This document shows positions 1,084-51,937 of a stretch of DNA of 64,000 bases, one piece after another. The DNA lies in NCBI GenBank assembly GCA_026770025.1, contig JAMXDE010000017.1, positions 744,001-808,000 of the forward strand, read 5' to 3'. The position numbers and the translations under genes are program-made. This DNA comes from Craspedostauros australis. Lineage: Eukaryota; Bacillariophyta; Bacillariophyceae; Mastogloiales; Achnanthaceae. The notes below the pieces were generated by a model. It was given only the letters and a program-made list of their open reading frames with translations, was not told the origin of the DNA and made no database searches. Within the stretch, counting starts at the first letter, position 1. Every line of letters starts with the position of its first letter.

Positions 1084-1842
1084 ATGAGATCATCCGTGAT
1101 AAGCATGTATCCAACGTTGGCTTTCGCGACGATCGGCATTGTGGCAACTGCTTGGAGCGGTTCTGCCGAACTGGTACAATCCCATCCCATCGTGACAGAG
1201 GCAGCAGATGCACAATCAATATCCGCACTGCCACCATCAACACGTGCTCTGCATGAACAGGGCTATCAGCATCAGCAGGATAATCACCAGCATCAGCAAC
1301 AGCAGCACACTCAGCGACATACTCAACGCACAGCTGACCATGGAAATGACAGCCAACTTCACCGCCGCACCGACCGATTGAAGCAAAGGGCAGCACGCAA
1401 GGGTGGCAAAGAACATGATAGCGCAAGTGCGCTCCATTCGCCGCAACGATCACTGCGGGCCAATGCAGGCATCGTCACCAACGCCAACCGATACTCCACA
1501 ATCACGGCAGTCGATGAAGCATCGCAAATAAATCCAGCCTTGTCGAAAGGCCCATCTGGAATAGTCGCCGTCCCTGAGCCACCAACGCATGCGCCAACGA
1601 GGGTGGACGACAACCGTGCCAATTCGAGAGCTGGTGCCTTCGGAAATTTCCCCAAGTCACCAAAACAGCATGCTGACGGTGACACCGGCCATCAGCTAAA
1701 ACCGACCAAGTCACCAAAGAAAATGAAAGGCGTCAACCAAGAAAATCACAAGAAAGCAAAGTACAAGAAAGCAATTAATAAGAAAGCGACCGTTCCGTAC
1801 CAGCTAGCAAAGCAGGCAAAGAAGGACGTGGTCACACCCTGA
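1084..1842 (+). CDS. Secreted Gln/His- and Lys-rich silaffin-like protein
   Basis: Single-exon protein of 252 residues. Residues about 8-29 form a hydrophobic signal peptide ending in a small-residue S-G-S-A context. An R-A-L tripeptide at 54-56 matches the RXL processing motif known in diatom biosilica protein precursors. Residues about 60-85 are rich in Gln and His. The C-terminal 50 residues are very basic, with K206, K209, K212 and K215 at three-residue spacing (KxxKxxKxxK) followed by KKAKYKKAINKKA. Lysine arrays of this type occur in silaffins, where modified lysines promote silica precipitation and help target proteins to the silica deposition vesicle. No conserved fold is visible. Two other loci here (4084, 50933) share leader, RXL and lysine clusters. 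The silaffin-like role is inference from composition; an extracellular matrix protein is the alternative. The ATG at 1084 is chosen because it places the hydrophobic segment near the N-terminus. Confidence 0.6.
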   Translation: MRSSVISMYPTLAFATIGIVATAWSGSAELVQSHPIVTEAADAQSISALPPSTRALHEQGYQHQQDNHQHQQQQHTQRHTQRTADHGNDSQLHRRTDRLKQRAARKGGKEHDSASALHSPQRSLRANAGIVTNANRYSTITAVDEASQINPALSKGPSGIVAVPEPPTHAPTRVDDNRANSRAGAFGNFPKSPKQHADGDTGHQLKPTKSPKKMKGVNQENHKKAKYKKAINKKATVPYQLAKQAKKDVVTP

Positions 1843-4083
1843 GGCGTGGTGAAATTACGAATCTGAGTCGAGACATCAGCAATGGCAGCGTTCTGAGGAG
1901 TAGTGACGGTGCTGCTGAGACTAACCGTTGGACCAATGCGGTTGCACCATTGTCTACATTGCGAACAAGCTTGACGGAGAGCCATTCACGAAGAGACTCT
2001 TTGCTCTCAAGTTCCGTTCGAGCACATTCAGAGCAATTCACAGCACAACTCAAACGGCGACGAACGTTGGACGGATGAAGAACTGAATGCAACTGTTCGC
2101 ACGACCAAGGCTTGGGCAGACCTGGCTACGCCGAACGGATACTACTCTGAAGAGTATACCGGGCACAGTGGCCGATGCCGATGCCGTTCGCTGAAGAGTC
2201 CTTGATCGATCGGTTGAATGCAGTAACTCCATCATGCGTTGAGATGCTCCACTCCGTGTTTTTGTTCAGCGCATGGGATCTTTCATAACATTGTCATTAG
2301 TGGTCCGGAATCACAGAGACCAAACGCGCATCTGCACAAGTACGACTATTCATCGAACCTATCCTCGCATGAGCAGGCCTCGTGTGTTCCGTAGACATAC
2401 AAATAATACTCGTAGTCATAGGTTTCGACCGTCACTTTCGCTCATGAATCTGTCTTTGTAGGTTCGTCTCCCCGCTCGCCTGCTTCTCGCTGTCGCCGTC
2501 ACCGTCGCAAGCGCACGGCTCTGCTCTGCCCTCTTTGTGGTTCTCTTTTCTTGTTTGAACGGCAAAGTATGATCGACCCTGACCAAGACGGAGATACACA
2601 TCAACAGCAGGGGAATCCTGTCAACATTCGAGATGCTGAAGGCGAGACGAAGAGAAAGAGGCAGAGAAAAATGAAAGAACAGGAACTGAAGCGAAAGTGG
2701 CTTTCTTCCTCCGATCCGTGTTCGCGTCATGGGATGTCCGGACCTTGGCTTGTGTCTTTCCCATTCGTGTCACACGCTTTCAGTATGGATCTATTGGAGA
2801 AAGTTCCCAAGAAAGTATCCACGACAACCTGATGTCTTGCGTAATCGTCAACGATTCAATCTTGTGAGACATCAAAATGTGAGGAAAGCCACATCGCAAA
2901 TCCCGTGGTTTTACACCGGCGTGCTCTTGTCGGTTTGGAAAAACGTTATATTGTCTTTGTAACTATGATGTGCGACATGTCGTAGTCACAAGTTGGTGTG
3001 TTGTTGGATGAACACTAAAATACGCGGGCAAGTTGATTATGAAGTTCAAGGTTTTGGCGCCACATTTTGAGCGGTCACATGGATTTGAAGTCATAAAATC
3101 GCGCCAACCCCACAATTCAAATTGGATACAAGAGTGATCACGAGACAACTTACATCATGAGATTTTGCGTAAACCGGACCAAGCAAACGATTTGCGCAAG
3201 TCTGAGAGAGGGTGATAGAGAAGCCAGCATGAACGGGAACGGGAACAACGACACCAAAGGAGAAGAGTGCTGATGTGAGAAAACAAGACGGAAACAATGC
3301 GAATACAAAGCGCGCGGAGAACAACGCCAAACAACATCGGCAATTGGAGCAGGATGTCACAGATCATGTGTGTGTGTGTGTTGCTGTTTCATCCACACCG
3401 CATTTGTGCGGTGGGTTGGGCATCATCATCATCACATCTCAGCAATCATCCCTTCTTACACATAAAACCAACTTCGAGACCAATCTCATCCCACACACAG
3501 GCACACACAACCAACCAACCAACCAACGCACACATTAAACCGCCGACCGTAAGTGAAGCTCTACATCAGTCTCAACTTCTGCACCGCCATGAACATGACA
3601 CCCGCGTCCACCATGGCGTCCAACCAACGAGGCTTCGTCTTGCTCTGCTGCCGATGCTGCCGCTGCATGTGAGCCATTTCGCACAGTTGTGCACATCCCG
3701 CGCAAACCAAGGACGGCATTTCCACGATTCCAGCACGCGTTCATGCAGAGACCTTTTGCCACGACCTCACCAAAACGGGGCACCGCGGCATACGGAAGCA
3801 GTGGAAAAGACTGCTGTTCGTTGTTGCATCGCCCCAAGAGTGCAGGAATAGCCAACAACTAAACGGGATTTGCTGCCTGTGAACCGCATCACCGCCACCG
3901 ACCAGATCTCTCACCTCTTCACCTTGCATCCCTGCTCTTCCATTTGATCAAATCCCACAATTGCCGTCACAACCAATTCATCCCACACTTCCTGAACTCA
4001 TCAACGCCAGCAGACATCAAGCAATCGCATCCAATCTCCAATCAATCCAACAAACTCCACGCACTCCAAACACATAATTCATC
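1843..4083. other. Intergenic, no supported gene
   Basis: About 2.2 kb between two secreted-protein genes. Open frames here are short, overlap each other and lack recognisable domains. The stretch from about 3480 to 4083 is rich in CA, CCA and CAAC, like the pyrimidine-poor leaders upstream of other genes in this window, and probably holds the 5' UTR of the 4084 gene. Short GT (3367-3381) and CCAA (3510-3530) microsatellites are present. Confidence 0.5.
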
Positions 4084-4944
4084 ATGTTCTTCGCCAAGAA
4101 AACCATCCAGCTCTTCCTCACAGTCGCTGTGCTCGCCACAGACACCAATGCCAATTACTATAGATTCGACCGCACCCTCGCATCCCCAAAGACAGAGAGC
4201 CCAGTTCCATTGACGGGAGCCAGCGCAAGCAGCAAGGGATCGAAGGCCCCAGCCGATGAAAAGAGTTCCAAGGGATCCAAGTCTCCATCCTATATGGGCA
4301 AGGGCAAGGGCAAGGGATCCAAGTCCCCATCCGATATGGGCAAGGGAACCAAGTCCCCATCTGATATGGGCAAGGGAACCAAGTCCCCATCTGATATGGG
4401 CAAGGGCAAGGGAACCAAGTCTCCATCCGATATGGGCAAGGGCAAGGGAACCAAGTCCCCATCCGATATGGGCAAGGGCAAGGGAACCAAGTCCCCATCC
4501 GATATGGGCAAGGGCAAGGGAACCAAGTCCCCATCCGATATGGGCAAGGGCAAGGGAACCAAGTCCCCATCCGATATGGGCAAGGGCAAGGGAACCAAGT
4601 CTCCATCCGATATGGGCAAGGGCAAGGGGACCAAGTCCCCATCCGATATGGGCAAGGGCAAGGGAACCAAGTCCCCATCCGATATGGGCAAGGGCAAGGG
4701 CAAGGGAACCAAATCTCCATCCGATATGGGAGGCAGCCACAAGATGGCGTCAGACGATATGGTGCCGGATACAGGAATGTCTGGCGACATGATCACCAAG
4801 TCTTCCAAAACCATCAAGATGACAAAGAAGCCACAGGACAAGACAGAGAAGGCCGTAAAGAAGGAAGCCAAGAGACTTCGACGCAGCGAGATGACCGACT
4901 ACGAGCCACACGTCCCAGACACCAAGAACAGCAGAAGGCAGTAA
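4084..4944 (+). CDS. Secreted Lys/Gly/Ser repeat protein, silaffin-like
   Basis: Protein of 286 residues encoded by one exon. Residues 1-23 are a signal peptide (hydrophobic core QLFLTVAVLA). An RXL site (R-T-L) lies at 30-32, where diatom biosilica precursors are typically cut. Residues about 68-215 consist of roughly a dozen copies of a 12-residue unit, K-S-P-S-D-M-G-K-G-K-G-T, with shorter variants. The tail is basic: K239, K242, K245 and K248 are spaced every three residues (KSSKTIKMTK), followed by more Lys/Arg. Silaffins combine signal peptide, RXL, phosphorylatable Ser next to Lys, and KxxK clusters; all are seen here. No enzymatic domain is present. Biosilica function is inferred, not shown. 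Long open frames on the opposite strand across the repeat are artefacts of its 36-bp periodicity. Confidence 0.7.
   Translation: MFFAKKTIQLFLTVAVLATDTNANYYRFDRTLASPKTESPVPLTGASASSKGSKAPADEKSSKGSKSPSYMGKGKGKGSKSPSDMGKGTKSPSDMGKGTKSPSDMGKGKGTKSPSDMGKGKGTKSPSDMGKGKGTKSPSDMGKGKGTKSPSDMGKGKGTKSPSDMGKGKGTKSPSDMGKGKGTKSPSDMGKGKGTKSPSDMGKGKGKGTKSPSDMGGSHKMASDDMVPDTGMSGDMITKSSKTIKMTKKPQDKTEKAVKKEAKRLRRSEMTDYEPHVPDTKNSRRQ
4290..4732 (+). repeat. 36-bp tandem coding repeat
   Basis: About a dozen in-frame copies of a 36-bp unit encoding K-S-P-S-D-M-G-K-G-K-G-T, with some 24-bp and 42-bp variants. Copies are almost identical at the nucleotide level, differing mainly at a few third positions (tcc/tct, gga/ggg), which suggests recent expansion or homogenisation. 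Confidence 0.9.
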
Positions 4945-6299
4945 AGGCTCGTCATCGTGCCACATGGCAAAGCGACTGCATCCGGTTGGCAGATGGATGA
5001 TCCACGATGATACATAGTATCTCACAAAATGGATCACCACCCATCTGATCAGCTTGCGACCTCCACGCAATATCTTCTCATCGGCAAAGCCTAACTCATC
5101 CCAAATGGACCAACGACCAACGAGCAACAAGAACTCAGGCAAACAGCAATAGTCTTCTGAGCGCACGCACAAAAACGTGTAAGCAAATGTGAACAGAAGA
5201 CAACCTTTACTCCGGCGCGGTGCGTGAGCACGGACAATCTCCAAAGATGGACCCCATTCCATCAACCACGTCACCGCCAAAGCCAAAATTGCACAAGGAT
5301 TGCTGTGAATCCTTTGGTCTCTTTCTCACCTCTCGGCACACCATCGCACCCATGCAAGCTGCCGGGAGAGCAAGTTCTCGTTGATCATTTTCATAACACA
5401 ACACCAACCGAAGGAGCGTCGCTCGCGCGATCCTCTCCTTCTTTTCGTCGCATCCTGTCGCCCCCCGAAAGCCCCCTGATGCGTCGGCGCACGTCCGACC
5501 AATCTATGGCTTTCTGTTGAACAGGAAGGACACAAATGTGAATATGCGCGTTAATGTACGTATGTAATTCTAAAGAAATGAAACCCAGCGTAATCAAGTC
5601 ATCCGGTGAACTACGCTTGTATGGCATACGGATACTCGTGCGTGCGCGCACGTCGATACTTTGCCATCGGTGCCACCACGATGACATTCAAACTCCACAC
5701 ACTCATCCTCGTACAAGCATTTCGCATCAATGGCGATCACGATCCTCGAGATGCTTTGGGACCACCAGTGCGATGGTCGCCCAGCTCTCTTGCATGTCGT
5801 TGGATTGAACAATCCAATCATCGGTTTGGGATCATGGCCTGGCATATAGCTACCAGTACATCATCGTTGGATGGAACCGTTATTTCGTGTTGCGAGGGGA
5901 GTGCTTCGTATGTATGAGTACGTTGGTACTTACATGCTCGTTCGTGTGCAACAGCATCTCACGAAACTCACACGAAGACAACATCACAACTTGCACAGTA
6001 CTATACGGGCGCCCGCACGAGCACGGTACACGCTTGTGCATGGTGCTGTTCTGCAAGACTCCGCCAGAACGGGTCGGCATCGTATCGGCACGTCGTCGGC
6101 ATGCGAGTGGATACTGCAGAGTTATACCGGATCTCTCCGGGTATCTGCACACGGTTGGATGGCGACTTGCGCGTCATTTCGACGAACTGCTCCTGCTACC
6201 AACACTCTCACGTACGAGTGCTCGCACCTAACTACGAACAATGTCTCGATTCAATTCTCTTGTCGCGGGTCATGTCTCCCCAAACTTCTAATTCTGTGT
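4945..6299. other. Intergenic between convergent genes
   Basis: Lies between the 3' end of the repeat protein gene (plus) and the 3' end of the prolyl hydroxylase gene (minus). Open frames are short and unrecognised. Several copies of GTACG/CTCGTAC-type words occur (for example near 5634 and 5915), as in other intergenic parts of the window. Confidence 0.5.
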
Positions 6300-12286: not shown

Positions 12287-12970
12287 GGTCGATTGATTGT
12301 CGTGTTGATTGTCGTGTCGATCTTGGATTGTTGATGAAGTTTCGGTTCAAAGATCTTGTGATCTTGATCGATGGACTCTGATCAGTTGGCTGGATTTGGA
12401 ATCCCGATGAAACAAATGCGCTGTTGTTGTTGCTGTTCTTTGTGGACACAAGTTTGCACACACGATGATAAGATACTTGTAGAGTTCTAGTTGGTGGCAG
12501 GGGTACGTGTTCTGGAATGATTGTGAAGTGGAGAGTCAGAGATGTTGGTATCGTTCTAACACTCTTGTGTCCAGTGGACGAGGATCCAGTATCAAATCAA
12601 TGCGTCGAATAGCGAGCAGCGTTGTCTGCTGGGTCGATGGTCGCCTGCCCACGCGAGCACTTGTGTGATCGTCAGCACAGCAGTCAGCGAACGATGATGT
12701 TGTGGACGTTAACCCCTCCACCAGCTATTCCGCATTGTAGTCAGAACGCAAAAGTGCAACACATCATCATCCTGTTGTCATCGCCATTGTTGTGGTTGTT
12801 GTCGTCACTTTTTGGTCGTTTGCGTTTGATCATCGTCTCTCACTGACGTGTTCAGCTGCGTTTTGGGTCATCGAAACGCAAAAGCGATCGCTGGGGTCAC
12901 GTGAGTCCACTGTACGTACCCATTCACCAATCAGAACGGAACGTCCTGTCCACGTTTTACGACGTCATAT
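12287..12970. other. Intergenic, PPR gene promoter side up to the transposon
   Basis: No gene is supported. The segment runs from the start codon of the PPR gene to the left end of the transposon. CATATG at 12966-12971 spans the junction and recurs at the right end. Confidence 0.5.
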
Positions 12971-13122
12971 GAGCCCGATCAGTGAGTCGACCTGCATTCC
13001 GTTATTGGCGTCTATAAAATTTATCTTGAATATCCCAACCAAGCACATATTCGTAATCCTTGTAGATCTAATACAAATAATTAACCGATGGATTTTTTAG
13101 TTAGATCCTATTTTAAGTTTTA
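12971..13122 (+). repeat. Left terminal inverted repeat of transposon
   Basis: Starts GAGCCCGATCAGTGAGTCGA and ends TTTTAAGTTTTA. It contains a TATAAAA word near 13013, which might serve as a promoter for the transposase, although the ATG is over 600 bases downstream. Confidence 0.9.
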
Positions 13123-13645
13123 TGAATATTCAAAGGTGTTGTGAAGTCGTATGGGTCGACCCCCGTGAACTTCCTAGTTGTTTCGCAGAAAGTTCGATTA
13201 TGTTCTCGTGCATTTACCCTATGTCGTCCAGTCACGGAATAGACGCCGGGATTGTCGTTCGTTTGGTACGCGTTAAATACACGTTAGCATCTGCGACATG
13301 ATCTCACATTTTGCTCGTCACAACACACATGACACAAAACACATCACACAAAACACATCACACATCCAACATCATCGCCATCCGCTCACAACTTCGGAAA
13401 TCATCGCCACTCTTTCGCTCCATTTCACAACTTTCCTCGCCAATGCCATGCGCACTCGCTGTTGTGTTCCATGCTTGTGCTCGCTCTAGTAGTGTAGTAG
13501 TAGTAGTAGTAGTAGTAGCAGTTGTTGTTGTTGTTGTCAACAAATGGTCGACCTTCATCCCATGCTCTCCTTTCCTCACTTCGTCTCAGACCAGTTCAAC
13601 ACATCCAACTAGCGAACAACTATACTCTCCAGAAACAACTACATC

Positions 13646-16600
13646 ATGCCTCTCTCCACCACCACCAAGGCCCTCTCCAAGGATGCCAACCCCTCCCCCA
13701 GTAAGAAACCGCGTTCTACTTACCCTGTATCTGCTCCTCCTGTTGACTCCAAGGGAAACTTGCTCCCTACCGCGGAGCAACTGTTGCCTGACAAGTCATC
13801 CGCTGTGTTGAGGAAGCCAACCACCATCACGCAAGTGATCGATGTGAAGCCGATGCATGCAGCGGATGGCGGCCTCGTCCCGAACAGTACGCATGCGCAT
13901 GCTCGCGAGCTGCACGTGTTCGTACACATCCTCGATGATAACGGAGGTGTCTACGACAACTCCAACGTCAGGGTGCGCTCGGAAGGACGAGGTGTCGGGG
14001 ATGGCACGTTGGTGAGCGTTATTGTGAACGCGCCACCCCCTGCTGTGCCTGATGTTGCTCCGCCTGTCGAGCCTACCCCGCCAGCGAGGCTTCCCCGGCG
14101 CTGCAATACTGTTGTTGCTGGTGGCTATGCAGATGCCTCTGGCGATAGCGACAGCACATACAACGACAACGGCAAGAAGGAACGAGCGCGTGTCAGCAGG
14201 AACAGGAGAAGAGGTCAGTTCGGGTACGATCTGGAAGAGGCGGGAAACTGGAGGCGGCCTGCTGTGATTCGTGTGATGGAGGAGCTCACGGATCACTTCG
14301 ATGTCAACACGTTTACTTCCATGCCTCCCAAGGGATTCGTGCTTGGCTGCAATTGCGACAGGCACACATGGTGGAATGTAACACGTGTGTGGGTCAACGT
14401 GGCTTCCGCGCTCTGGGGTGTGTTGCTCCCTCAGGAGGCTCTGCCAACTCGCCAGATGGAACAGGTCGTGGCGTTTGTTCGTGCTCGCGTGGACCTGCCA
14501 CCGCCTAGCCTGGGTCCGAATCTATACACCCTATGTGTGAGGGGAGAAAAGACACTGGCCAACGCTGCTCGAGCTGTGCTCGCTACATCTACGTCATTCG
14601 CTAATAGCTCTGCAATCCTGTCTCGTCACATGGACAGTTTGCTGGAGGAACAGCGTATTCGTGTCGAGCCCGGACGCGCTACAATGACCCGGAGTCAACT
14701 AACAACCTTGCGCCACGCCTTTGATATGTTCAGCTGTGGCAGACTCATCCCACCACGAGTTCTCCAATACCGTGTGCGTGCTTGCGACCTGTCTGGCGTG
14801 GTGTCCTTCCTCATGACAACAACAACATATAAGGCAGGGTTGAGTCACACAGTACAGTATGGCGGTGTCAATTTTGAAAATGTTCCGGTGTTCGATCGTG
14901 GAAGCACCACCATCCGAGACTTATTCGGCATGTACTTGTCCACTACCAGCAAGCCAGTGGGAAGGCCCGCCTTCACCACCATTACTAACCTACTCACACG
15001 CAAAAGCAAGATCAAGACGGGCCTTTCTTCCTTCGAGAGTTACTTCTGGATGGCCACGGAGAAACTCAAACAGGCAATTTCGCGCCTAGTAGACCTGCTG
15101 AAGGCTAAGTATGAAGCAGACAAGGAGGAACAAAACAATGCCAATGACGAGAGCGACAGCGACAGCGACAACGACGAGCCAGATGACGTCATCTCTCCAC
15201 ATGTGCGCACAGCCGATTCTCTCTTGCATGCACTCGAACTGCTTGTTGTGTTCCTCAAATGGGAGTTCACCGCCTCCCACATGCAGCTTCAGTGTGGCGA
15301 TCCAATGCACTCGGCCGCGTTCGCTCTCACCACCAAAAAGGAGAAGAAGAAGGCAACATCCACACCAACCAACCAACACAAACCACGCACCAACAAGCAC
15401 AAACGCAAGAAGAACACTCTCAAAAGCGACACGCCAACCATCACAATTGACATTCCTCCCACCACCACAACCGAACAACCACGTAAAGTATGCAACCGTT
15501 GTGGATCAGCAATGCGATTTGTGAATGATCGTTTCGTTCCTTTTGTCACAATGCTTAAGGACAACGAACTCGCAGAACACAAGGACGAATTGCAATCAAT
15601 GCTCGCGGCGGCGCCGGGATTCGCCAACGAAATTGTTAACTACATGGCTCACAAAGTGCGTGCAAAAGTTCAATTCGGACAAATCGCCTTTTATCAATCC
15701 GAACTCAACAATAAGCCTGAAAGAGCCTATGTGGTACTCGACCATAAGCAAAAAATTCTACCAACAGGCCAAGGCGAAGCCCAACAAGAATATTGGGGGA
15801 AAAAGGGAATGTCACTGCTTGGGGCAATGGTCATCACATGTCGCAATGACATTTTTACTTATCGGTTCATCGACATTGTGGTCGATGGAAGACCGACGCA
15901 AGACACTCTTCAAGTTGGTGGACTGCTTGACATCGTGCAAAAAAAGGTCAAAGACATTCTCCCATCCGTGACTGAAATCATCCTACAGAGCGATAATGCG
16001 TGTTGCTTTGCCAGTCACGAGCACATCGCGCTCATCACATCGGTACTCAACAAGAATCTTGCGACACGAAAAGCAGCTAAAATCATCGCGTGGATCTACA
16101 CGGAGGCCCAAACCGGTAAGAGCATGCTGGACACCCACTTCGCGTACATCACACGTGTACTGCGAAAATACGTGCAAAGTGGCAAGGACATCAAGACCCC
16201 TTTCCAAGTCTTCCTCGCGCTCCAAGCCGGTAGCATCGCAGGTACGACAACGGTACTGGTCAACGCAGAGACCCTCGAAGGCAACATCACGACGCTTCCT
16301 GGCGCACCAAAACGACGATTCCGCGCGAACGGGCAACAGGTACGTCAGACTCACGAGGTGAAGTATGACGATGACCAGGCGCGGTTGGTGGCTGCATCTG
16401 GCATCACCGAAGACGTCGTGGTGAAGAGCGCTGAATGGGAAGGGTGGATCATCAACCAGCTGGGCGTTGCCGATGTTCACACACACAAGTCCGACAAGCT
16501 GCCGATCACGTCCGAATCGTTCAGGAAGACGGACAAGACGCGAAAACTCGGGCGCACCGCGGCAGAGAGCAAGGCGCTGGTGTTCGACAAGGCCATCCAA

Positions 16601-17173
16601 GACGGACAACAACACCTGCCATCCGATCACACCGCGAAGTTACACGACCAGACCGCAGAAACCGAACACCCACCACTCGCAGTCCAAGGCTGGGCGAGCA
16701 AAACAACGCGCAAACCAGCGGATCTGCCAGACTACATCACGGACAAATTGAAAGGCATCTGCGAAGCGTCCGCGAAGGACCCAAAAAACAGACCGTCCGA
16801 ACATGAAGCACACGAACAATTGATGGCGGACGAAAAAGCAAAAACTGACTGGTACGTGCAACTGCACGCAAATCCCATGCGTGTCAAAGCGTCGCTGTCT
16901 GCAGCGTACAACGCCAAGCAACGCAAACAAAAGAAGGAGGCTGCCCTCATCAAGACAGACACCAACACAACAAGCAAAGCAACAGCAACAGCACCTGCAC
17001 CTGCAATCGTGGCGACCCACAATACGCCAGCTGCAACAGAGGAGGAACGAAGAGAAGAAGAGTTGCAGAGAGAGGAAGAGGAATGGGAGAATCAGAGGTG
17101 GTGTGATGCTCACACAATGAAGGTCCATGCAGAAAGTGAGGCTGTGTTGGGTGATGAGACGGAAATCTTGTGA
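13646..17173 (+). CDS. DDE-type transposase-like protein
   Basis: Uninterrupted 1175-residue reading frame in the centre of an element with terminal inverted repeats. The N-terminal half has a Cys/His pair group near residue 236 (C-N-C-D-R-H) and a long basic/acidic linker at about 480-610. A C-x2-C finger lies at C616/C619. The following domain has conserved-looking acidic positions: D699 in V-V-L-D-H-K, D783 in L-Q-S-D-N-A, and E820/D829 in T-E-A-Q-T-G-K-S-M-L-D-T-H-F-A. I read these as the catalytic triad of an RNase H-fold transposase, similar in layout to large eukaryotic families with an '(x)QTGKxxxDxxFA' motif. The C-terminus (about 1100-1160) is Lys/Glu-rich. It would bind the element's ends and catalyse excision and integration in the nucleus. 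Triad assignment and superfamily are inference. Confidence 0.75.
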   Translation: MPLSTTTKALSKDANPSPSKKPRSTYPVSAPPVDSKGNLLPTAEQLLPDKSSAVLRKPTTITQVIDVKPMHAADGGLVPNSTHAHARELHVFVHILDDNGGVYDNSNVRVRSEGRGVGDGTLVSVIVNAPPPAVPDVAPPVEPTPPARLPRRCNTVVAGGYADASGDSDSTYNDNGKKERARVSRNRRRGQFGYDLEEAGNWRRPAVIRVMEELTDHFDVNTFTSMPPKGFVLGCNCDRHTWWNVTRVWVNVASALWGVLLPQEALPTRQMEQVVAFVRARVDLPPPSLGPNLYTLCVRGEKTLANAARAVLATSTSFANSSAILSRHMDSLLEEQRIRVEPGRATMTRSQLTTLRHAFDMFSCGRLIPPRVLQYRVRACDLSGVVSFLMTTTTYKAGLSHTVQYGGVNFENVPVFDRGSTTIRDLFGMYLSTTSKPVGRPAFTTITNLLTRKSKIKTGLSSFESYFWMATEKLKQAISRLVDLLKAKYEADKEEQNNANDESDSDSDNDEPDDVISPHVRTADSLLHALELLVVFLKWEFTASHMQLQCGDPMHSAAFALTTKKEKKKATSTPTNQHKPRTNKHKRKKNTLKSDTPTITIDIPPTTTTEQPRKVCNRCGSAMRFVNDRFVPFVTMLKDNELAEHKDELQSMLAAAPGFANEIVNYMAHKVRAKVQFGQIAFYQSELNNKPERAYVVLDHKQKILPTGQGEAQQEYWGKKGMSLLGAMVITCRNDIFTYRFIDIVVDGRPTQDTLQVGGLLDIVQKKVKDILPSVTEIILQSDNACCFASHEHIALITSVLNKNLATRKAAKIIAWIYTEAQTGKSMLDTHFAYITRVLRKYVQSGKDIKTPFQVFLALQAGSIAGTTTVLVNAETLEGNITTLPGAPKRRFRANGQQVRQTHEVKYDDDQARLVAASGITEDVVVKSAEWEGWIINQLGVADVHTHKSDKLPITSESFRKTDKTRKLGRTAAESKALVFDKAIQDGQQHLPSDHTAKLHDQTAETEHPPLAVQGWASKTTRKPADLPDYITDKLKGICEASAKDPKNRPSEHEAHEQLMADEKAKTDWYVQLHANPMRVKASLSAAYNAKQRKQKKEAALIKTDTNTTSKATATAPAPAIVATHNTPAATEEERREEELQREEEEWENQRWCDAHTMKVHAESEAVLGDETEIL

Positions 17174-17409
17174 GGGGTGTGCTTCGCCGCGATAACACGA
17201 GTTGTGGAGTTTTGTGGGTGCCTGGTCATGCTACTTAATCGAGTCTAGAGTCCATCCAAAAACACACATAAAAAATCTGCTTACCATGCTATATCTCAAC
17301 AACACATCACTTAAAATTGAAGCTAAACATTGAGTTCAGACGCCTGACTATCTGTTAATCAGAATATTGAAGTTGAATTGATATTGAAGCTGTTTTTATT
17401 TTCATGTTG

Positions 17410-17435
17410 ATCCACCACACAATTGTGTGGTGGAT
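17410..17435. repeat. Perfect 26-bp palindrome inside the transposon
   Basis: Two 13-base arms (ATCCACCACACAA and its exact complement) abut with no loop. It lies about 240 bases past the transposase stop codon and may act as a transcription end signal or a protein site. Confidence 0.8.
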
Positions 17436-17471
17436 TCAAAAAATTCTCGATCAAGCAATGTTGCCCTCCTC

Positions 17472-18437
17472 TCAGCACCCATGATCATCATCATCCTCCT
17501 GGTATTTTGATAAACTGCGCACCACAATGGCTTGGTATAATCCCCATCTATCCACTCCATGAAGCTGGGCCACAGATACCCACATGACATGGCCCAAAGT
17601 GTCCCTGCAGTGAAAAAGAACGTTGTCAAAAAACCGATTGCAATCCGGATGCGGTATGGATACGGATCCATACCGCGTCCTTACGATCCTTGCAGCCCAT
17701 CCACATGGTCCTCGTGCATTCTCACACTCCCTGGAGACACGCTGAAGCATCCAGAATGGGCTGGGAATGTGTGCACCCAAAGATACAGCTCCATTTGGTG
17801 ATGCCATTGGTTTTTGGGGGGCACCCACCAACAACGACCATTCGTCGGATATGGTAGGATGCCGCCTCTTGTAGGCCGTCTCCGCGGCGCAAACTTCGCG
17901 AGGTGAATCTTCCATTGATTTCGCACGCATCTTGTATGGGTGGCTTGGCAATTGTGTGAGTTGGCGGTGGTGCCCTCCACAGCCAAAGCCACATGATGGA
18001 AACCCCCACGACACACCGCGAAAATTGTTTGCCCTCCACCTTTTCCTCCGCGCGGACGGCTTCCCAGTCCTCCCCGAGCCTGAAACTTCGTGGGTATCTT
18101 GGTTGTGGCCTCCCGGAGCCATCCTGCGAATCCATAGGCGTTGGCGTGGGCTGTGGATGGAGTACACTGGCCATATGCAGCGAGGCAATCTGGTGCGAAA
18201 TTGTGACGTTTGATCTGGGGACTGCGACGGCCCCAAATCAAGCACACTCGCGGCCCCCTCTCGTCCACCCACCAACGGTTGCATTGCGGTGACGGTGATG
18301 CGATTGGATTTGTCATTGGACTGCTGGTTGGTGCGGCGCATTGATTGCCGTTGGACGGCCATTGTGGCGTTTTTTGGTGTTTTGCCATTGTCATGTTGTT
18401 GGTTTTTGGAGTTTGGCACTCTCAACCAGTCGGACAT
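17472..18437 (-). CDS. Unassigned open frame in transposon 3' part (doubtful)
   Basis: A 321-codon frame from the ATG at 18437 runs antisense to the transposase. Two other minus-strand frames over the same bases are also long (237 and 150 codons), so openness here may simply reflect base composition. The translation is rich in Arg, Pro, Trp and Cys and shows no domain I recognise. It could be an accessory transposon gene, part of a spliced gene, or non-coding. Listed because it fills most of the 1.7 kb between the transposase and the right terminal repeat. Confidence 0.2.
   Translation of the reverse strand: MSDWLRVPNSKNQQHDNGKTPKNATMAVQRQSMRRTNQQSNDKSNRITVTAMQPLVGGREGAASVLDLGPSQSPDQTSQFRTRLPRCIWPVYSIHSPRQRLWIRRMAPGGHNQDTHEVSGSGRTGKPSARRKRWRANNFRGVSWGFPSCGFGCGGHHRQLTQLPSHPYKMRAKSMEDSPREVCAAETAYKRRHPTISDEWSLLVGAPQKPMASPNGAVSLGAHIPSPFWMLQRVSRECENARGPCGWAARIVRTRYGSVSIPHPDCNRFFDNVLFHCRDTLGHVMWVSVAQLHGVDRWGLYQAIVVRSLSKYQEDDDDHGC
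17647..17680. repeat. 14-bp stem hairpin inside the transposon
   Basis: Arms GGATGCGGTATGGA and TCCATACCGCGTCC pair with one mismatch around a six-base loop TACGGA. Confidence 0.75.
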
Positions 18438-18874
18438 ACTGGGGGATAAGGTAATTGCAAACACCTAACCAAATGCACGAAAGAAGCATGACACAAAACA
18501 CTTCCGGAGTACCAATGCAACTTGACCATTCTGTCACGACGAAACGTCGCTGATGCTGCTTCACATCGTGCTGTGATTGGTGGCTCATGACGCAGCAGCC
18601 AGTCTGGTGACGTAGATGACGGATCAGACAAGCACAGGGTAGAATGGATGCAAATGCGCACTCGCCGCTTCTCCCAAAACTCTACAACTAGCGCTATCGT
18701 GGACGGGGTGTTGGATGGTCTGATCGGGACACCTGAAAAAGAGACTAAACAATTCAAAATGGGAACAACCTTGCTGAAACGAAGAACAGCAAAGGGTTAA
18801 GTTTGATCGATGTAGTCGTAGGCGAAAGGCTGAAACCCGAGAGAGATCGAAAATTGCGCATATCCATCGGTCCG

Positions 18875-19026
18875 TAAAACTTAAAATAGGATCTAACTCA
18901 AAAATGTAATGGTTAATTATTTGTATTAGACCTACAGGGATTACGAATATGTGCTTGGTTGGGATATCCAAGCTAAAATTTCTGGAGGCCAATAACGGAG
19001 TGCAGGTCGACTCACTGATCGGGCTC
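18875..19026 (-). repeat. Right terminal inverted repeat of transposon
   Basis: Reverse complement of the left repeat, ending TCACTGATCGGGCTC. Differences from the left copy cluster in two short patches, about 40-60 and 115-130 bases from the tip. Confidence 0.9.
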
Positions 19027-20140
19027 ATATGCAATCATTGTCTGTTTGTCTGTGTTCAGAGACAGGTATCAGTTCTGGTTTCCATCCTGAACAGACAGAC
19101 ACAACACCATCTGTCTGTTGTGGGAAGGCTCAAAGACACGGATCGACGGCGTGTGTTCTGTGCCAGAAAGGTATCTTTGGCTGTTCGCGTTCTCCAATGC
19201 TGCAAACCGTGTTGGTGACACTGTTCGTGCGTCTCGGAAAAAAAGATGGCGCTGGGCACAATCTACCCGTGTGTTGTGTTGCTACTGGCACGTCACAGTC
19301 AGTGCTTTCCAGAGTATCGTATCCACACGAGCGGAGTGCCGCGGATTCTGCGGTATCGATGGTCGTAGCAGCAGTCACGAGCGCGTGGCCCATGGTCACA
19401 ATGTGTTGCTCTTTTTGGAGAAAGATTGAGGGGGGCAAAGTGGCGGAATGGCGGAATGGCCCTTTCCCGACGTGGGTGTGTGTCTCTTGGCGTTGGTTGG
19501 CCATTCGCGAATTCTTGTATTCGTGTATCTGCAGATCCGTGTGCATGCGTACAATAGTACGCATACTTGCACACGACGAGATTTGGATACAGTTTGGTTG
19601 AAGAGGGCAGGATCCATGAACTGGAGATGGAGGCGAACACCCTCAGACACCAGGAGCGAAGGATTCCGGCTGATTTGTGCCGCAGAGATGACATGACATG
19701 ACACGCAACGACGCATCCTCTCACCAACTGCTGCACCAGCTGGCTGCTTTCTACTCGTACAAGGCAGCCCTCTGATGCCCCAGAGTAGCTCGCACTCTCT
19801 TCCATCGGTGTGCGTGTTGCCCTCCATCATGAGAGTACTGTACACCCTGCGTGTGCACCTACCGCTGCCAGTACCAAGAAGAGGAGCACAGCGGGCACGA
19901 CACGCGGCAATCGTGTGCTCTTGATTGTGCAGCTGCCCATACACATAGGTTGTACGAGTGCCATGCGCGCACGAATACGAATGTACATGCACACGCCCTG
20001 GTAGTTTGGGCATCTCTGGCTCTGGCGCCCATGCAACAGAGACGAGGACACAAAAAGGAATCTAACAGGAAGCCGAATTCAATCAACAGCATCCAACACA
20101 GGACACCCAGCCAAGCAGACAACTCATCACAGCTATCACA
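19027..20140. other. Intergenic, no supported gene
   Basis: Open frames are short and mutually overlapping. The final ~100 bases, rich in CA and CAA, are probably the 5' UTR of the small gene at 20141. Confidence 0.5.
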
Positions 20141-31809: not shown

Positions 31810-33786
31810 TCAATTGGTTCTCGTGGAGCTGGTTCTCATGGAACGGACGAGGTCCACCAATGCCACCCGATCCATGTACGAATCCACTTGTGCTGTACCC
31901 TCATCCTGATCCGTAACCTTGTACAGCTCCACCATGGACATGTGGCTGTACTCGTCATCAATACCATCACTCTCCGCTCCCCCACTGCGGAGGACATGAA
32001 TGTCTCTCATCAGTTGGGGCTGTGGAACCAACTTGCCGAAATCTGGATGAGTGAACATATCTTTCTCACTTTCACCAACCATTCTCATTGCTGCATCTTT
32101 CAACACCACACAGTTGTGTTGATGAGCGAATATCAACACATCTATCATGGTGTCTTCTGTGAGATGCTTGCGGGCCAACTCTGCTTCAAGAACAAGCTTG
32201 AGTCGCCAGAAGCCGAATTCGTTGGCCACAAGGATCAGCTGTTGCAGATCATCCTGTCCATTGAGGATGGGAGTTGGCTGGTTTGCGTCATCATCGCCAG
32301 CGTAGTCATGAGTGTTGTTGTTGAAGGATATCTCACCTCTGTAGATGCATTGGAGGACGTATCGGACGTGTTTTGGTTGAAAGTTGGGAAGAGGGACGGT
32401 TGTTTGGATGGGTTCAGTTGTATCTTGAGCGCCATCATGGGCACCATCGTGAGCGCATTGATGTTGGATTCCAGAGTTGATCAGTGTCTGAATGGATGGG
32501 ACAGTGATCATGAGGACTGTGGAGTTTGCCTTGATTGATTGTTGTTCGTCCCCTTGTCCGCACAGAAAGGAAACGTCTGCGATGGCCTCGGTACGAAAAG
32601 CAGCATGGCGATCTTGGTCGATGCTGATCTTGAGATGTTGTTTCAACTTCCGTTTCAGTTGTTCGTTCTCCTGTTGACTTTTCGAGAGCAAGCGATGCAT
32701 TTCTTCCTTCTCCTGTTTCAACTGTTGTTCCAACTGCTGTTTCAATTGTTCGTTCTCCTGCTCCTTCTGGGTCTTCTCTTGCTCCTTCTGTTCCAACTGT
32801 TGTTTCAGTTGTTCATTCTCTTCCTCCTTCTGCTTCTTCTCTTGCTCCTCTCGTCCCAACTGCTGTTTCAGTTGTTCATTCTCTTGCTCCTTCCGTTCCA
32901 ACTGTTGTTTCAGTTGTTCATTCTCTTGCTCCTTCTGTGTCTTCTCTTGCTCCTTCTGTTCCAACTGCTGTTCCAGTTGTTCATTCTCTTGCTCCTTCTG
33001 TGTCTTCTCTTCCTTCTCACGTTTCAGCTGCTGTTCCAGGTGTTCGTTCTCCTCCTGCAGTTGTGAGTTGCAGCGACTCAGATGTGTGAGACGTTTTAGC
33101 ATCTTGATTTGAAGTGTTGCATCGATCAAATTGAGGGGGGTTTTGTTGTTGATGTTTTGAATATCGGTATCGGCATTGGCTGATGCAACGAGGTACGCAA
33201 CACACTCCAGGTAGCCGTTGGAGCATGCCCGATGAAGGGGAGTGTCACCAGAGATGTCTTTGCAGCTGATGTCCGCCTCACATGATTCGATGAGGTACTT
33301 GACACACTCCAGGTGGCCGTTGGAGCATGCCTGATGAAGGGGATTCCAACCACCACTGTCTTTGCAGTTGATGTTCGCCTGACATGATTCGATGAGGTAC
33401 TTGACACACTCCAGCTGGCCGTTGTAGCATGCATCATGAAGGGGAGTGCAACCATTGTTGTCTTTGCAGTTGATGTCCGCCTCACATGATTCGATGAGGT
33501 ACTTGACACACTCCAGGTGGCCCTTGTTGCATGCATCATGAAGGGGAGTGCGACCACGGTTGTCTTTGCAGTTGATGTCCGCCTCACATGATTCGATGAG
33601 GTACTTGACACACTCCAGGTGGCCGAAGAGGCATGCCAGATGAAGGGGAGTCCACATATCGTAGATTTTGCAGTTGACACCATCTCCTTCATTCTGCGTC
33701 TTGCTCTGCTTCTTCCATTCCTTCAACACTGACAAGTCACCTGCAGAGGCAGCATCAATGAGTTGTTGGTTGGTAACACTCGGCAT
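31810..33786 (-). CDS. Ankyrin repeat - coiled coil - BTB/POZ protein
   Basis: Single-exon protein of 658 residues from the ATG at 33786. Residues about 40-225 are five to six ankyrin repeats of ~35 residues (T-P-L-H-D-A-C, L-E-C-V-K-Y-L-I-E-S-C). Residues about 250-390 are an uninterrupted coiled coil of Gln/Glu/Lys heptads (E-N-E-Q-L-K-Q-Q-L repeated). A BTB/POZ-like domain follows (D-V-S-F-L-C-G ... K-A-N-S-T-V-L-M), with a downstream helical region typical of BTB proteins. BTB proteins often bind Cullin-3 as substrate receptors for ubiquitination, with the ankyrin repeats recognising the target; that role is inference. Ankyrin repeats are nearly identical in DNA, and so are the coiled-coil segments, suggesting recent internal duplication. 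Short GTTGGACGAT repeats lie just upstream. Confidence 0.88.
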   Translation of the reverse strand: MPSVTNQQLIDAASAGDLSVLKEWKKQSKTQNEGDGVNCKIYDMWTPLHLACLFGHLECVKYLIESCEADINCKDNRGRTPLHDACNKGHLECVKYLIESCEADINCKDNNGCTPLHDACYNGQLECVKYLIESCQANINCKDSGGWNPLHQACSNGHLECVKYLIESCEADISCKDISGDTPLHRACSNGYLECVAYLVASANADTDIQNINNKTPLNLIDATLQIKMLKRLTHLSRCNSQLQEENEHLEQQLKREKEEKTQKEQENEQLEQQLEQKEQEKTQKEQENEQLKQQLERKEQENEQLKQQLGREEQEKKQKEEENEQLKQQLEQKEQEKTQKEQENEQLKQQLEQQLKQEKEEMHRLLSKSQQENEQLKRKLKQHLKISIDQDRHAAFRTEAIADVSFLCGQGDEQQSIKANSTVLMITVPSIQTLINSGIQHQCAHDGAHDGAQDTTEPIQTTVPLPNFQPKHVRYVLQCIYRGEISFNNNTHDYAGDDDANQPTPILNGQDDLQQLILVANEFGFWRLKLVLEAELARKHLTEDTMIDVLIFAHQHNCVVLKDAAMRMVGESEKDMFTHPDFGKLVPQPQLMRDIHVLRSGGAESDGIDDEYSHMSMVELYKVTDQDEGTAQVDSYMDRVALVDLVRSMRTSSTRTN

Positions 33787-37206: not shown

Positions 37207-37217
37207 GACTGTTGTCT

Positions 37218-41374: not shown

Positions 41375-41640
41375 GGGACACCCGGCAAAAAGGGTCGAAT
41401 TAGTCGATATTGGAGATGACTGGCCCAGCCAATTAAAACTTGTTGTAATGGCGATGACAAATATTCCCGCGAAAAGAATGCTCTCGACTCATATTTTCGT
41501 TCTCAGGAACTCTTCGTGGGTCATAGCTTCGAGTTTCACTGTTGGGAGAATCATGGAGAAACTCCGAAAATGACCCTGAAGCACAGCCTCGTGATTTAAT
41601 CCCGAGAAGTCGTGCAACAACCAAACCCATGATTTTAATA

Positions 41641-41840
41641 GCCGTCGTTCGACTCAAATAGCCGTCACTCGACTCAAATAGCCGTCATTAGATTTAAATA
41701 GCCGTCATTCGACTCAAATAGCCGTCATTTGATTTAAATAGCCGTCATTCGACTCAAATAGCCGTCATTTGATTTAAATAGCCGTCACTCGACTCAAATA
41801 GCCGTCATTAGATTTTAATAGCCGTCATTCGACTTATTTA
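41641..41840 (+). repeat. Array A: ten 20-bp units
   Basis: Consensus GCCGTCATTCGACTCAAATA. Ten contiguous units with no spacing change. After the first two units, CGACTC-type and GATTT-type units alternate strictly. The last unit ends TTATTTA instead of TCAAATA. Confidence 0.95.
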
Positions 41841-42304
41841 GTTAGTCATCTGTTGTCTTCACGGGATACGTCTCCACCACTATTTTAGTAATTAGATCAC
41901 TCCCTCACACCCCACAAAACGCAACAGCCGGCCATCAACCACCGCTCACCCACACCAAGCAACACAGGAAGCTCAACCTTGGCAATCGGTCAACGCTGAT
42001 CAACACTCATGCGAAGTTCAACGCTGCGATGAAGGTGTCTAGTCCATCTTGCATTGGCTTCCCTAACAGTCAATTTTTCGACTTGGCAAGGCTTCACATT
42101 TATAAGATAGCAATGAAATTTGAACGGTGACGACAACACTCCAAACGCACACCCGTCTCTGTTGTGATTCTTTGAGAGCAGAACAGAGCAGCGAAGAGCC
42201 ATCAATTTGTGGGTTCGTTGGGAGACCAGGCGCATTTACCTGGTTTGATCAATTTCCAAACTTGTCAACTTGGATCACGAGTAGAAAGCACTGCGAATAA
42301 AATA

Positions 42305-42504
42305 GCCGTCGTTCGACTCAAATAGCCGTCACTCGATTCAAATAGCCGCGACTCGACTTAAATAGCCGTCATTTGATTTAAATAGCCGTCATTCGATTCA
42401 AATAGCCGCGACTCGACTTAAATAGCCGTCATTAGATTTAAATAGCCCTCACTCGATTCAAATAGCCGTTATTAGATTTAAATAGCCGTCATTCGAATTA
42501 TTTA
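42305..42504 (+). repeat. Array B: ten 20-bp units, same orientation
   Basis: Ten units of the same 20-bp family as array A, 464 bp downstream. The first unit is identical to the first unit of array A and the last also ends TTATTTA. Internal units differ more, with GCCGCGACTCGACTTAAATA variants at positions 3 and 6. Confidence 0.95.
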
Positions 42505-45514: not shown

Positions 45515-46263
45515 GCACGTCTGCGGCAAGATCAGGCGAGAATTCTCTTGCGCGTACGAGCGCGGGTGGCAGTCCTACGTCAGAGCAGCGATGGCAGGGG
45601 GTGTTGTTGGCGCGAACGGTGCCGAATGAAACAGAGGACCAAATACGGAGCAACTCTACTCTGCGAGCACGTGCGTCAGCGGCAAAAGCGCCGATGGCAA
45701 CGAAGAATCGCAACGCGCCAAGAAAGCTCCGTTGCTCTGACATCCATTTGTCCATCTCTCCCTCCCTTTCTCTCTGGAGAGACTGAGAGAGTTCTCTAGG
45801 GAGTACGTATGTGCCATTACTCGTACACGTAGCACTCACATCACAGTATAGCTCCCGCATTGCCAATGAAACAAGAGCATGTTCCGTTGGGAGCCCAAGG
45901 AATACTGGAGTTTTCTAGTATTCCAAGCAAGCAACTTGCTCCACACACGAGATTACATTCCACTTCGACCAGAGTTCGTGCTCTACTTGAATTCTGTATA
46001 ACTATGGCAAACTGATCTGCGCCCGTACGAATAGAGTATGCTCGTGTGCCAGCACAAAGAGGCGGGCCCGCTGCACGCCACTAACACACGAGTATAAACT
46101 ATTAATACATAATGCAATATATTGCATAATATTTATTAGATGTAATAGGCTAGGTGGAGCGTCACCCTGAGTGCGACTGTCACAAGCAAAAGCACGGGCA
46201 TGGTCAAGGGCATGATCAATGACATGCTCTCTCTCTCTCGTCAGAGAACTGCTTTGGAACTCA
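45515..46263. other. Short convergent intergenic region
   Basis: Between the 3' ends of SmE (plus) and TMCO1 (minus). Contains A/T-rich DNA with ATAATATTTATTA-like words near 46120-46140 and a CTCTCTC tract near 46226. No gene is seen. Confidence 0.55.
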
Positions 46264-49848: not shown

Positions 49849-50932
49849 AGCCAACGGCGATGGCAAGAGAGCCACCAAGGAGAGTTTCGAAGACTTAAAA
49901 TGACCTCTGGAGGATACGCGGACATCAAACACAGAGAGCCGCTTGCGCGTCTGACACGAGACGGTGAATTCAAGTTCAAATTTTGTCCGCAAGCCAGACG
50001 GCAACGCAGAGCGCCGCGTTTCAAAATGCTTTGTTGATCACAATCCAACCCGTGTCGTCAGGTCACAATGCAGTTTCCGTGATAGGCTCCTCGTGCCAAA
50101 CATGAGAACCCAAACAAATCAGCTGCCTTGTCCCGGATTTCCTTGTCAAACAGACGTATTTCCTTCCGTTCACAGAAAGTTACGTCAAGCTGGCTCTTCA
50201 CATTCCCTGTTGATGAGGCGCCCGGCGCGCATCTTTTGGCGCTTCAAGGACTAAATTGGACACGAGGCCACGCACTTGTGACCATGTATCTTTCCGTTCA
50301 GTAGTGTAAAATGGAAAATGATGACGTCACATGCACGCTTCGCTCTCAATCGTGGATTTTCATCGACGATCAAACTCATAGTTTAACGGCTCCTTGCCAA
50401 ACAAATATGAGACGTCCTTGCGCCATCCCCGCCATCGGATGCAAGACCGGAGACGTGTGACTTCGTTTCTGGATGTGCCACATGGTTCAACAGCGCGTGG
50501 CCATCTCTTAAATTTTCGGCCGCATACCCAAGTCACAAAATATTCGGCATTTGCAGTTCAACATCACTGCACTTTCTCGCGTTGCAGTGGCGGCGACAGA
50601 GTGATGGGGTTTTCACATGTCGCGGACAGAGGAGATGTTTGCTTCCTCTATCTGCTGCCGCAGTCGCGGTTGCCGCCATTGCCGCTTGTGTTGGGGCCGC
50701 TGCTGTATCTGCTGTCTCTGCTGTCTCCGTTTGTGTTTGTGTTCAGCGTGTTGGCGGTATGCGTCTAATCTTTTGGTGCTGCGCTTGCTGTGGCTTGCGA
50801 AGTGACATAAAACAGCAACTCTGGCACTCTTCGATCAGTCAACACATCAGCGAGACACCAACACAAGCTACCACCAGCTTCCCCACCGCTCTCTGCACCC
50901 GCATCCAATCAAACAACCATCTCTATCCCATC
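49849..50932. other. Intergenic, no supported gene
   Basis: Follows the methyltransferase stop and precedes the silaffin-like gene. The open frame upstream of 50933 continues back to 50582, but that part lacks protein character. The last ~70 bases (CCA/CAA-rich) look like 5' UTR. Confidence 0.5.
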
Positions 50933-51937
50933 ATGAAGCTCTCCCTCTTTGCCACCACCATCCTGGCCGTTGCCGCCCTCTCCAACGCCGAAGATGTCGC
51001 CAGCAACCGCGTCTTGAAATCCGACAAGTCTGACAAGAGCATGGACATGGATGGAATCTCCAAGAGCACCAAGTCCCCGAAGACTGACAAGGCTGACAAG
51101 GCCGCCAAGGCCAGCACTTCCCCAGACATGACCAAGATGCCCAAGACGTCCACTTCCCCAGACATGACCAAGATGCCAAAGATGTCTGCTTCCCCAGACA
51201 TGACCAAGATGCCAAAGATGTCTACTTCCCCAGACATGACGAAGATGCCAAAGATGTCTACTTCCCCAGACATGACCAAGATGCCAAAGATGTCCGCCGG
51301 CCCAGATATGACGAAGATGCCAAAGATGGGCTCCGACATGACCAAGATGCCCAAGATGTCCGCCGGTCCAGACATGACCAAGATGCCAAAGATGTCCGCC
51401 GGTCCAGATATGACGAAGATGCCAAAGATGGGCTCCGACATGACCAAGATGCCAAAGATGTCAACTTCACCAGACATGACCAAGATGCCAAAGATGTCTA
51501 CTTCGCCTGACATGACCAAGATGCCGAAGATGTCCGCCGGTCCAGACATGACCAAGATGCCGAAGATGTCTGCTTCCCCAGACATGACCAAGATGCCTAA
51601 GATGTCCACTTCCCCAGACATGACCAAGATGCCAAAGTCTGACAAGGCCGACAAGGCTGCCAAGTCCAGCGAGTCTCCAGATATGACGAAATCACCAAAG
51701 TCTGACAAGGCTGACAAGGCTGCCAAGTCGGACAAGTCCAGCGAGTCTCCGGACATGACCAAGATGCCCAAGATGTCTACTTCCCCAGACATGACCAAGA
51801 TGCCCAAGATGTCGACTTCCCCAGACATGACCAAGATGCCAAAGATGTCGGCCGCTCCAGACATGACCAAGATGCCTAAGATGTCGGCCGCCCCAGACAT
51901 GACAAAGGCGCCAAAGATGGGAACGCGCCGAGTCTAA
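50933..51937 (+). CDS. Silaffin-like secreted protein with pentalysine clusters
   Basis: Protein of 334 residues. I chose the ATG at 50933 because it starts a typical signal peptide (M-K-L-S-L-F-A-T-T-I-L-A-V-A-A-L-S-N-A), although the frame is open further up. R-V-L at 26-28 is an RXL processing site. Lysines K44, K47, K50, K53, K56 and K59 follow at exact three-residue steps with Ser, Asp, Thr or Ala between (KxxKxxKxxKxxKxxK); another run is K253-K268 at the same step, and a shorter one K235-K244. Such 'pentalysine clusters' were described in Thalassiosira silaffins as silica-targeting signals. Most of the remainder is a 12-residue repeat S-P-D-M-T-K-M-P-K-M-S-T, variants with A-G or A-S. 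No folded domain is evident. Role in biosilica is a strong inference. Opposite-strand open frames are shadows of the repeat. Confidence 0.8.
   Translation: MKLSLFATTILAVAALSNAEDVASNRVLKSDKSDKSMDMDGISKSTKSPKTDKADKAAKASTSPDMTKMPKTSTSPDMTKMPKMSASPDMTKMPKMSTSPDMTKMPKMSTSPDMTKMPKMSAGPDMTKMPKMGSDMTKMPKMSAGPDMTKMPKMSAGPDMTKMPKMGSDMTKMPKMSTSPDMTKMPKMSTSPDMTKMPKMSAGPDMTKMPKMSASPDMTKMPKMSTSPDMTKMPKSDKADKAAKSSESPDMTKSPKSDKADKAAKSDKSSESPDMTKMPKMSTSPDMTKMPKMSTSPDMTKMPKMSAAPDMTKMPKMSAAPDMTKAPKMGTRRV

What the first reader, a model, noticed from the sequence alone, without database searches (positions are those of the whole stretch)
1084..51937. Three separate secreted proteins share signal peptide, RXL site and KxxKxxKxxK clusters
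The proteins at 1084-1842, 4084-4944 and 50933-51937 have unrelated body sequences but the same plan: signal peptide, an RXL tripeptide within the first 60 residues, and four to six lysines at exact three-residue spacing. This plan matches diatom silaffin precursors. Two lie only 2.2 kb apart, so this may be a small biosilica gene neighbourhood with new silaffin-like members.
Basis: partly seen in the sequence, partly recalled or inferred. Interest (0 to 1): 0.8.

Follow-up and report, generated by a model that had tools for sequence, protein, structure and literature searches.

The report
Local family of silaffin-like secreted proteins
One, and probably two, of the three proteins flagged in this alga's DNA belong to a small family of secreted, lysine-rich repeat proteins that look like the precursors diatoms use to build their glass shells; the third is probably unrelated.

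Summary
The three ORFs exist as stated: a plausible signal peptide, an RXL within 60 residues, and 4, 4 and 6 lysines at spacing three. C (50933-51937) clearly, and B (4084-4944) weakly, belong to a family found by whole-genome search: signal peptide, R-x-L just behind it, then K-rich 'TK[S/M/A]P' repeats. Five of eight family places lie within 275 kb of one contig (0 of 200,000 random placements; 2 of 200,000 without B, as four of seven). B, C, E and G pass the composition part of the published silaffin-like screen. In 264 kb, 4 of 560 ORFs pass it, three of them family members. A (1084-1842) fails it, has no paralog at E<=0.001 and neutral codon usage. So the 'two within 4 kb' neighbourhood is not supported, but a wider one is. 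About 28 intact single-domain silicon-transporter genes make a diatom source likely. Best reading: RXL-processed, silaffin-like cell-wall precursors; silica association is inferred, not shown.

The parts
4084..4944 (+). Family member B (weaker link): 286 aa; signal peptide (about 1-23, by eye), RTL at 30-32, 12-residue repeat SPSDMGKGKGTK, lysine-rich C-terminus
   Evidence: translation; 36-bp tandem array 4302-4700, 11.4 copies; 82 of 187 windows pass the S>=18/K>=10 screen; match to the C32 member E 1.8e-4
50933..51937 (+). Family member C: 334 aa; signal peptide (about 1-19, by eye), RVL at 26-28, 12-residue repeat SPDMTKMPKMST, lysines on a three-residue lattice
   Evidence: translation; 36-bp tandem array 51117-51919, 22.9 copies; 55 of 235 windows pass the screen; related to E and D and to G from residue 2; lattice
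1084..1842 (+). ORF A: 252 aa, Q/H-rich body, basic C-terminus; probably not a family member, gene status uncertain
   Evidence: translation; no other place in the genome at E<=0.001; fails the composition screen; codon score 0.011 bits per codon against 0.127-0.237 for B, C, D, E
4302..4700 (+). 36-bp tandem array coding the repeat of B
   Evidence: differences between neighbouring units by codon position 1, 1, 8 of 101 each
51117..51919 (+). 36-bp tandem array coding the repeat of C
   Evidence: differences by codon position 17, 9, 37 of 186 each

Best explanation
C, and most likely B, are precursors of secreted, probably disordered, lysine-rich repeat proteins of a diatom, members of one small family enriched on this contig, as if by local duplication. 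Shown: an N-terminus fit for a signal peptide, an R-x-L 3-12 residues behind its likely end, repeats of 6, 11 or 12 residues with K-x-P, net positive charge, and (in B, C, D, E) unit differences concentrated in third codon positions. Inferred: the chain enters the ER, an endopeptidase cuts at R-x-L, Ser/Thr become phosphorylated and lysines modified, and the resulting polycation or zwitterion goes to the silica deposition vesicle or the frustule's organic matrix, where it helps silica form or binds it. A is not part of this.
For: R-x-L behind the signal peptide in the five members read in full (B, C, D, E, G), middle residue free: RTL, RVL, RAL, RRL, RAL. Sil1p has an RXL behind its signal sequence, and RXL is typical of biosilica-associated proteins (PMC4557024, PMC5525289, passages). 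The screen of at least 18% Ser and 10% Lys per 100 residues plus ER signal (Scheffel et al. as described in PMC3478156, passage): composition part passed by B, C, E, G, failed by A, D; 4 of 560 ORFs in 264 kb pass, 3 of them family. Pentalysine clusters without adjacent lysines in C (5 windows) and E (14). Family and clustering. Silicifying genome.
Against: No expression, proteome or localisation data. KXXK with X = S or G (criterion of PMC5501833) is absent from C, D and E; only B has one adjacent pair. Pentalysine clusters without adjacent lysines are absent from A, B, D and G, and occur in 8 of 283 ORFs, members included. D has 3.4% Ser and no lysine lattice. B is not matched with C, D or E directly. 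RXL near the N-terminus is common by chance (31 of 260).
Confidence: 0.5

Rival explanations
1. The family is extracellular but not silica-bound: K/P/S/T-rich repeat proteins of the mucilage, adhesive or other cell coat, with RXL acting as a general secretory processing site.
For: K-x-P repeats rich in Ser/Thr resemble adhesive and cell-coat repeat proteins in general terms (recalled). The KXXK with S/G of silaffins is largely missing.
Against: No Tyr, Trp or Cys from residue 20 on in C, D, E and G (B has 4 Tyr), so no residues for DOPA or disulfide crosslinks. The silaffin-like composition screen is passed by four of the five members read in full.
Confidence: 0.3
2. Low-complexity proteins with no shared origin: tandem-repeat slippage in an organism that favours K/S/P/T repeats made similar sequences several times, and the family is partly a compositional illusion. 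B is the most likely case.
For: Repeat similarity of low-complexity proteins inflates scores; B and C repeats differ in register and B is not matched with C, D or E; another K/G/S-rich repeat protein exists (C21).
Against: Hits of the C32 member begin at residue 1 or 2 in E, F and C, taking in the signal peptide. C-E and C-D stay significant with low-complexity filtering. Five of eight places within 275 kb are not expected of independent origins.
Confidence: 0.14
3. One reading: A, B and C are three independent silaffins and A-B form a biosilica gene pair.
For: A has a signal-peptide-like N-terminus, RAL at 54, a run of 4 K at spacing 3, and 3 windows of 12-14 residues with 5 K if adjacent lysines are allowed.
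Against: A fails the composition screen, has no paralog at E<=0.001, no pentalysine window without adjacent lysines and no lysine lattice (0.40 against 0.33, 288 of 2000 shuffles as high); its RAL lies about 25 residues beyond the likely cleavage site.
Confidence: 0.06

Closest known systems
Silaffins (Cylindrotheca fusiformis Sil1p; Thalassiosira pseudonana Sil1-Sil3)
   Same: Signal peptide, RXL behind it (Sil1p), basic lysine-rich repeats, clustered lysines with KxxK spacing (PMC4557024, passages)
   Different: Here the repeats are K-x-P with Met, Thr or Asp; no RXL at the ends of repeats; lysine modifications, fluoride extraction and silica precipitation unknown; no sequence comparison with a known silaffin was made
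Silaffin-like proteins (SFLPs) of Thalassiosira pseudonana
   Same: B, C, E and G pass the Ser/Lys composition screen and have a signal-peptide-like N-terminus
   Different: D fails on Ser and has Asp in its repeat instead; KXXK with X = S/G is rare (five in B, one in G, none in C, D, E)
Cingulins
   Same: Secreted, repetitive, lysine-enriched regions (PMC9650480, passages)
   Different: No tryptophan/tyrosine-rich regions, which alternate with KXXK stretches in cingulins (PMC4557024)

Membership tests
Silaffin-like proteins (SFLP screen) | At least 18% Ser and 10% Lys per 100 residues | tested here: met
   B 82 of 187, C 55 of 235, E 91 of 217, G 24 of 24 windows pass; A 0 of 153 and D 0 of 193 fail
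Silaffin-like proteins (SFLP screen) | ER signal peptide | tested here: inconclusive
   Hydrophobic N-terminus and small-residue cleavage site by a crude filter and by eye; no SignalP
Silaffin-like by KXXK screen (PMC5501833) | Repeated KXXK with X = S or G, 1-6 residues apart | tested here: not met
   A one motif, B five motifs with one adjacent pair (marginal), G one, none in C, D, E
Silaffins | RXL behind the signal peptide | tested here: met
   B, C, D, E, G, the five members read in full; in A only at residue 54. Chance level 31 of 260
Silaffins | Pentalysine cluster (5 non-consecutive K in 12-14 residues) | tested here: inconclusive
   met by C (5 windows) and E (14); not by A, B, D, G when adjacent lysines are excluded; 8 of 283 ORFs of 150 aa or more have one
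Silaffins | Purified from biosilica, modified lysines and phosphoserines, silica precipitation in vitro | not testable with these tools
   needs proteomics and biochemistry
Cingulins | KXXK stretches alternating with Trp/Tyr-rich regions | tested here: not met
   from residue 20 on: no Trp in B, C, D, E, G; Tyr 4 in B, 0 in the others

The most novel reading that the evidence does not exclude
A so far undescribed diatom class of silica-matrix precursors. After signal peptide and R-x-L, the chain is a K-x-P repeat whose lysines, in its most regular members, sit on a three-residue lattice (92% of near K-K pairs in C, 97% in G), so that in a polyproline-II-like coil (three residues per turn, recalled) positive side chains line one face. 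Ser/Thr for phosphate in most members, or Asp in D, supply the negative partner. The class grows by local gene duplication, and repeat units turn over quickly while the processing site is kept.
Probability: 0.22. Interest if true: 0.68.

Novelty: new member of a known kind. Interest (0 to 1): 0.4.

Why it matters
Silaffin-type proteins are hard to recognise across species because their bodies diverge and only composition, processing site and lysine spacing remain. A set of paralogs in one genome shows which features stay (signal peptide, R-x-L with free middle residue, K-x-P) and which drift (repeat length 6, 11 or 12, Ser against Asp, Met content). This makes the role of lysine spacing testable: C and G are on the three-residue lattice, D is not. 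It also gives concrete candidates for frustule proteomics.

Tried and rejected
A as third silaffin: rejected on composition, lack of paralogs, lysine lattice and codon score. The codon score is weak evidence, since the antisense frame of C also scores 0.12 and it was trained on only five ORFs of the window.

Lysine lattice as a feature of the whole family: rejected; D is at chance (0.33) and B modestly above it (0.45, 0 of 2000 shuffles).

Recent segmental duplication as source of the family: the contig holds many recent duplicated blocks, but C-D and C-E are only 46% and 41% identical, and B, C and D lie in none of the 40 longest blocks listed (E appears there only by its own internal repeats).

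Upstream regions shared between members: 600 bases plus 90 coding bases of A, B, C, D, E and G gave one 22-base match, E-G, inside the coding start.

Solved structures and Pfam: nothing credible for C in the PDB (best E 0.06); nothing over a Pfam cut-off for A, B, C, D, E, G.

A first third-position count used units already chosen for identical protein and is circular; the count, which chooses by DNA similarity only, is the one used. A first pentalysine count allowed adjacent lysines (16 of 283 ORFs); the stricter count is.

Rows dropped: matches with E above 0.001 were not counted. Of the matches at E<=0.001, a second frame of B itself (C15:748185) and the C21 and C2 matches of B (E 1.6e-4 and 9.6e-4) were left out of the family of eight: C21 has an acidic stretch, many PT repeats and a KGKGSK block without RXL, and the C2 frame has 1.8% Lys. 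With both counted the contig holds 5 of 10 (0 of 200,000 random placements). The script missed C in its joint RXL-plus-K count because it took the upstream ATG; its five of 260 are A, B, D, E and a 393-aa ORF with several hydrophobic stretches.

Full report
What was claimed. Three secreted proteins at 1084-1842 (A), 4084-4944 (B) and 50933-51937 (C) with unrelated bodies but one plan (signal peptide, RXL, lysines at spacing three), read as a small silaffin neighbourhood.

Observation. The ORFs and motifs are as stated. Residue shuffles reach the observed lysine run in 1.1% (A), 25% (B) and 0.6% (C) of 2000 trials. An RXL before residue 60 is found in 58 of 260 signal-peptide-like ORFs of the 264 kb of contig I could read, and a run of four lysines in 9 of 283 ORFs of 150 aa or more, members included. 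The individual motifs are therefore weak. The signal-peptide filter is my own and crude.

Where the window lies. It is C15:744001-808000 of a 74.8-Mb assembly of 90 contigs. The silicon-transporter family PF03842 gives 88 matches. By my count of that table, 28 cover the domain (from position 11 or before to 504 or beyond) without a stop, and four more are near full length with stops. Eight of eight loci read are intact frames of 548-550 aa with one CMLD and two GRQ motifs; GXQ and CMLD motifs are marked on the diatom SIT of PMC10700740 (passages). Parmales have 1-2 SIT genes, many with two domains (PMC10328945, passages), although PMC13403384 (passages) gives one common range, 2-3 to more than 30, for Bacillariophyta and Parmales. 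A diatom is the likely source; the species is not known.

A family, not three strangers. Searching the genome with C, B, E, D and the C32 member G gives eight places with the same kind of protein at E<=0.001: on C15 at 693.4k (F), 748.1k (B), 794.9k (C), 822.5k (D) and 967.3k (E), and on C32 (G), C4 and C31. F has two stops in the matched stretch, so it may have an intron or be decayed; it and C31 could not be read. The C4 frame of 203 aa shows no signal peptide in frame. Five of eight within 275 kb was reached in 0 of 200,000 random placements, and four of seven, leaving B out, in 2 of 200,000. This shows local origin, not function. C-E and C-D stay significant with low-complexity filtering (2e-30, 9e-12). 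B's link is the weakest: E 1.8e-4 to G, 0.004 the other way, and no match with C, D or E. The counts are lower bounds, as the tool says.

Anatomy. In B, C, D, E and G the R-x-L follows the likely signal-peptide end (by eye) by 3-12 residues: RTL, RVL, RAL, RRL, RAL. R and L stay and the middle residue varies, as expected of a processing site; common descent explains part of the agreement. Behind it come repeats: B SPSDMGKGKGTK, C SPDMTKMPKMST, D TKMPKADGDMG, E and G TK(S/A)P(S/D)(A/M) and variants. K-x-P accounts for 15 of 56 lysines in B, 22 of 59 in C, 23 of 50 in D, 46 of 62 in E and 15 of 19 in G. Differences between neighbouring units fall mostly in third codon positions: B 1, 1, 8 of 101; C 17, 9, 37 of 186; D 4, 11, 54 of 169; E 10, 4, 27 of 53 at period 18. 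So the repeats are kept at protein level. Lysines lie on a three-residue lattice in C (92% of pairs within 30 residues) and G (97%), partly in E (54%) and B (45%), and not in D (33%, chance); among 56 ORFs compared, members included, C is first, E second and B seventh.

Test against published screens. The Scheffel screen as described in PMC3478156 (passage) is passed on composition by B, C, E and G, not by A or D. Of 560 ORFs of 100 aa or more in 264 kb four pass, namely B, C, E and an 1879-aa ORF. The KXXK (X = S/G) screen of PMC5501833 (passage) is not met by A, C, D, E or G and is marginal in B. The pentalysine cluster, taken without adjacent lysines, is met by C and E only.

A. It has no other place in the genome at E<=0.001 (next 0.007), fails composition, has ordinary lysine spacing and a codon score near zero. 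It may be a gene, but nothing ties it to the family.

Mechanism. Most likely these are RXL-processed, disordered, polycationic cell-wall precursors acting like silaffins. Disorder was not computed; it is inferred from composition and repeats. Entry to the ER, cutting at R-x-L, modification and silica association are inferred from silaffins and Sin1 (PMC4557024, PMC5525289, passages). D, with Asp where others have Ser/Thr, would carry its negative charge without phosphorylation; this is inference.

Novelty. No paper describing this family turned up, but only narrow searches were made (listings, with passages of some papers) in a library that lacks most subscription journals, and no diatom proteome could be searched. 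I file B, C, E and G as silaffin-like by composition, not as silaffins.

Noticed in passing
G000 genome-wide (L032-L039 and table): About 28 intact silicon-transporter genes plus many fragments; eight dispersed copies are 94-98% identical in DNA (measured on the longest open frame, antisense to the gene in most of them) and differ mostly at third positions in the nine same-length pairs compared: a large recent expansion under purifying selection, against 3-8 in the diatom genomes of PMC10328945 (up to more than 30 in PMC13403384). Part could be uncollapsed haplotypes.
   Followed up: partly
L009 (C21:936332-939910): A protein of more than 1050 aa with hydrophobic N-terminus, acidic stretch, many PT repeats and a GKGKGKGSKSSKS block with 23 K[SG][SG]K motifs and 38 pentalysine windows (adjacent lysines allowed), but no R-x-L; a closer fit to the KXXK screen than A, B or C.
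   Followed up: partly
31810-33786 (-): Ankyrin/BTB protein with four close paralogs 50-100 kb downstream on the contig (826k, 834k, 856k, 873k; 86-91% identity over about 293 aa) within or beside segmental duplications.
   Followed up: partly
12966-19029: 6-kb block 96.7% identical in inverted orientation to C15:888332-894416, holding a 1175-aa ORF without Pfam match at E<=0.001; possibly a mobile element or segmental duplication.
   Followed up: no
41637-41834 and 42300-42500: Two minisatellite arrays of much the same 20-bp unit (AATAGCCGTCATTCGA...), about 10 copies each.
   Followed up: no
59331-61457 (+): Frame with the C-terminal part of an aldehyde-dehydrogenase domain followed by iron alcohol dehydrogenase: a bifunctional AdhE-type protein whose N-terminal part is not in this frame.
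   Followed up: no
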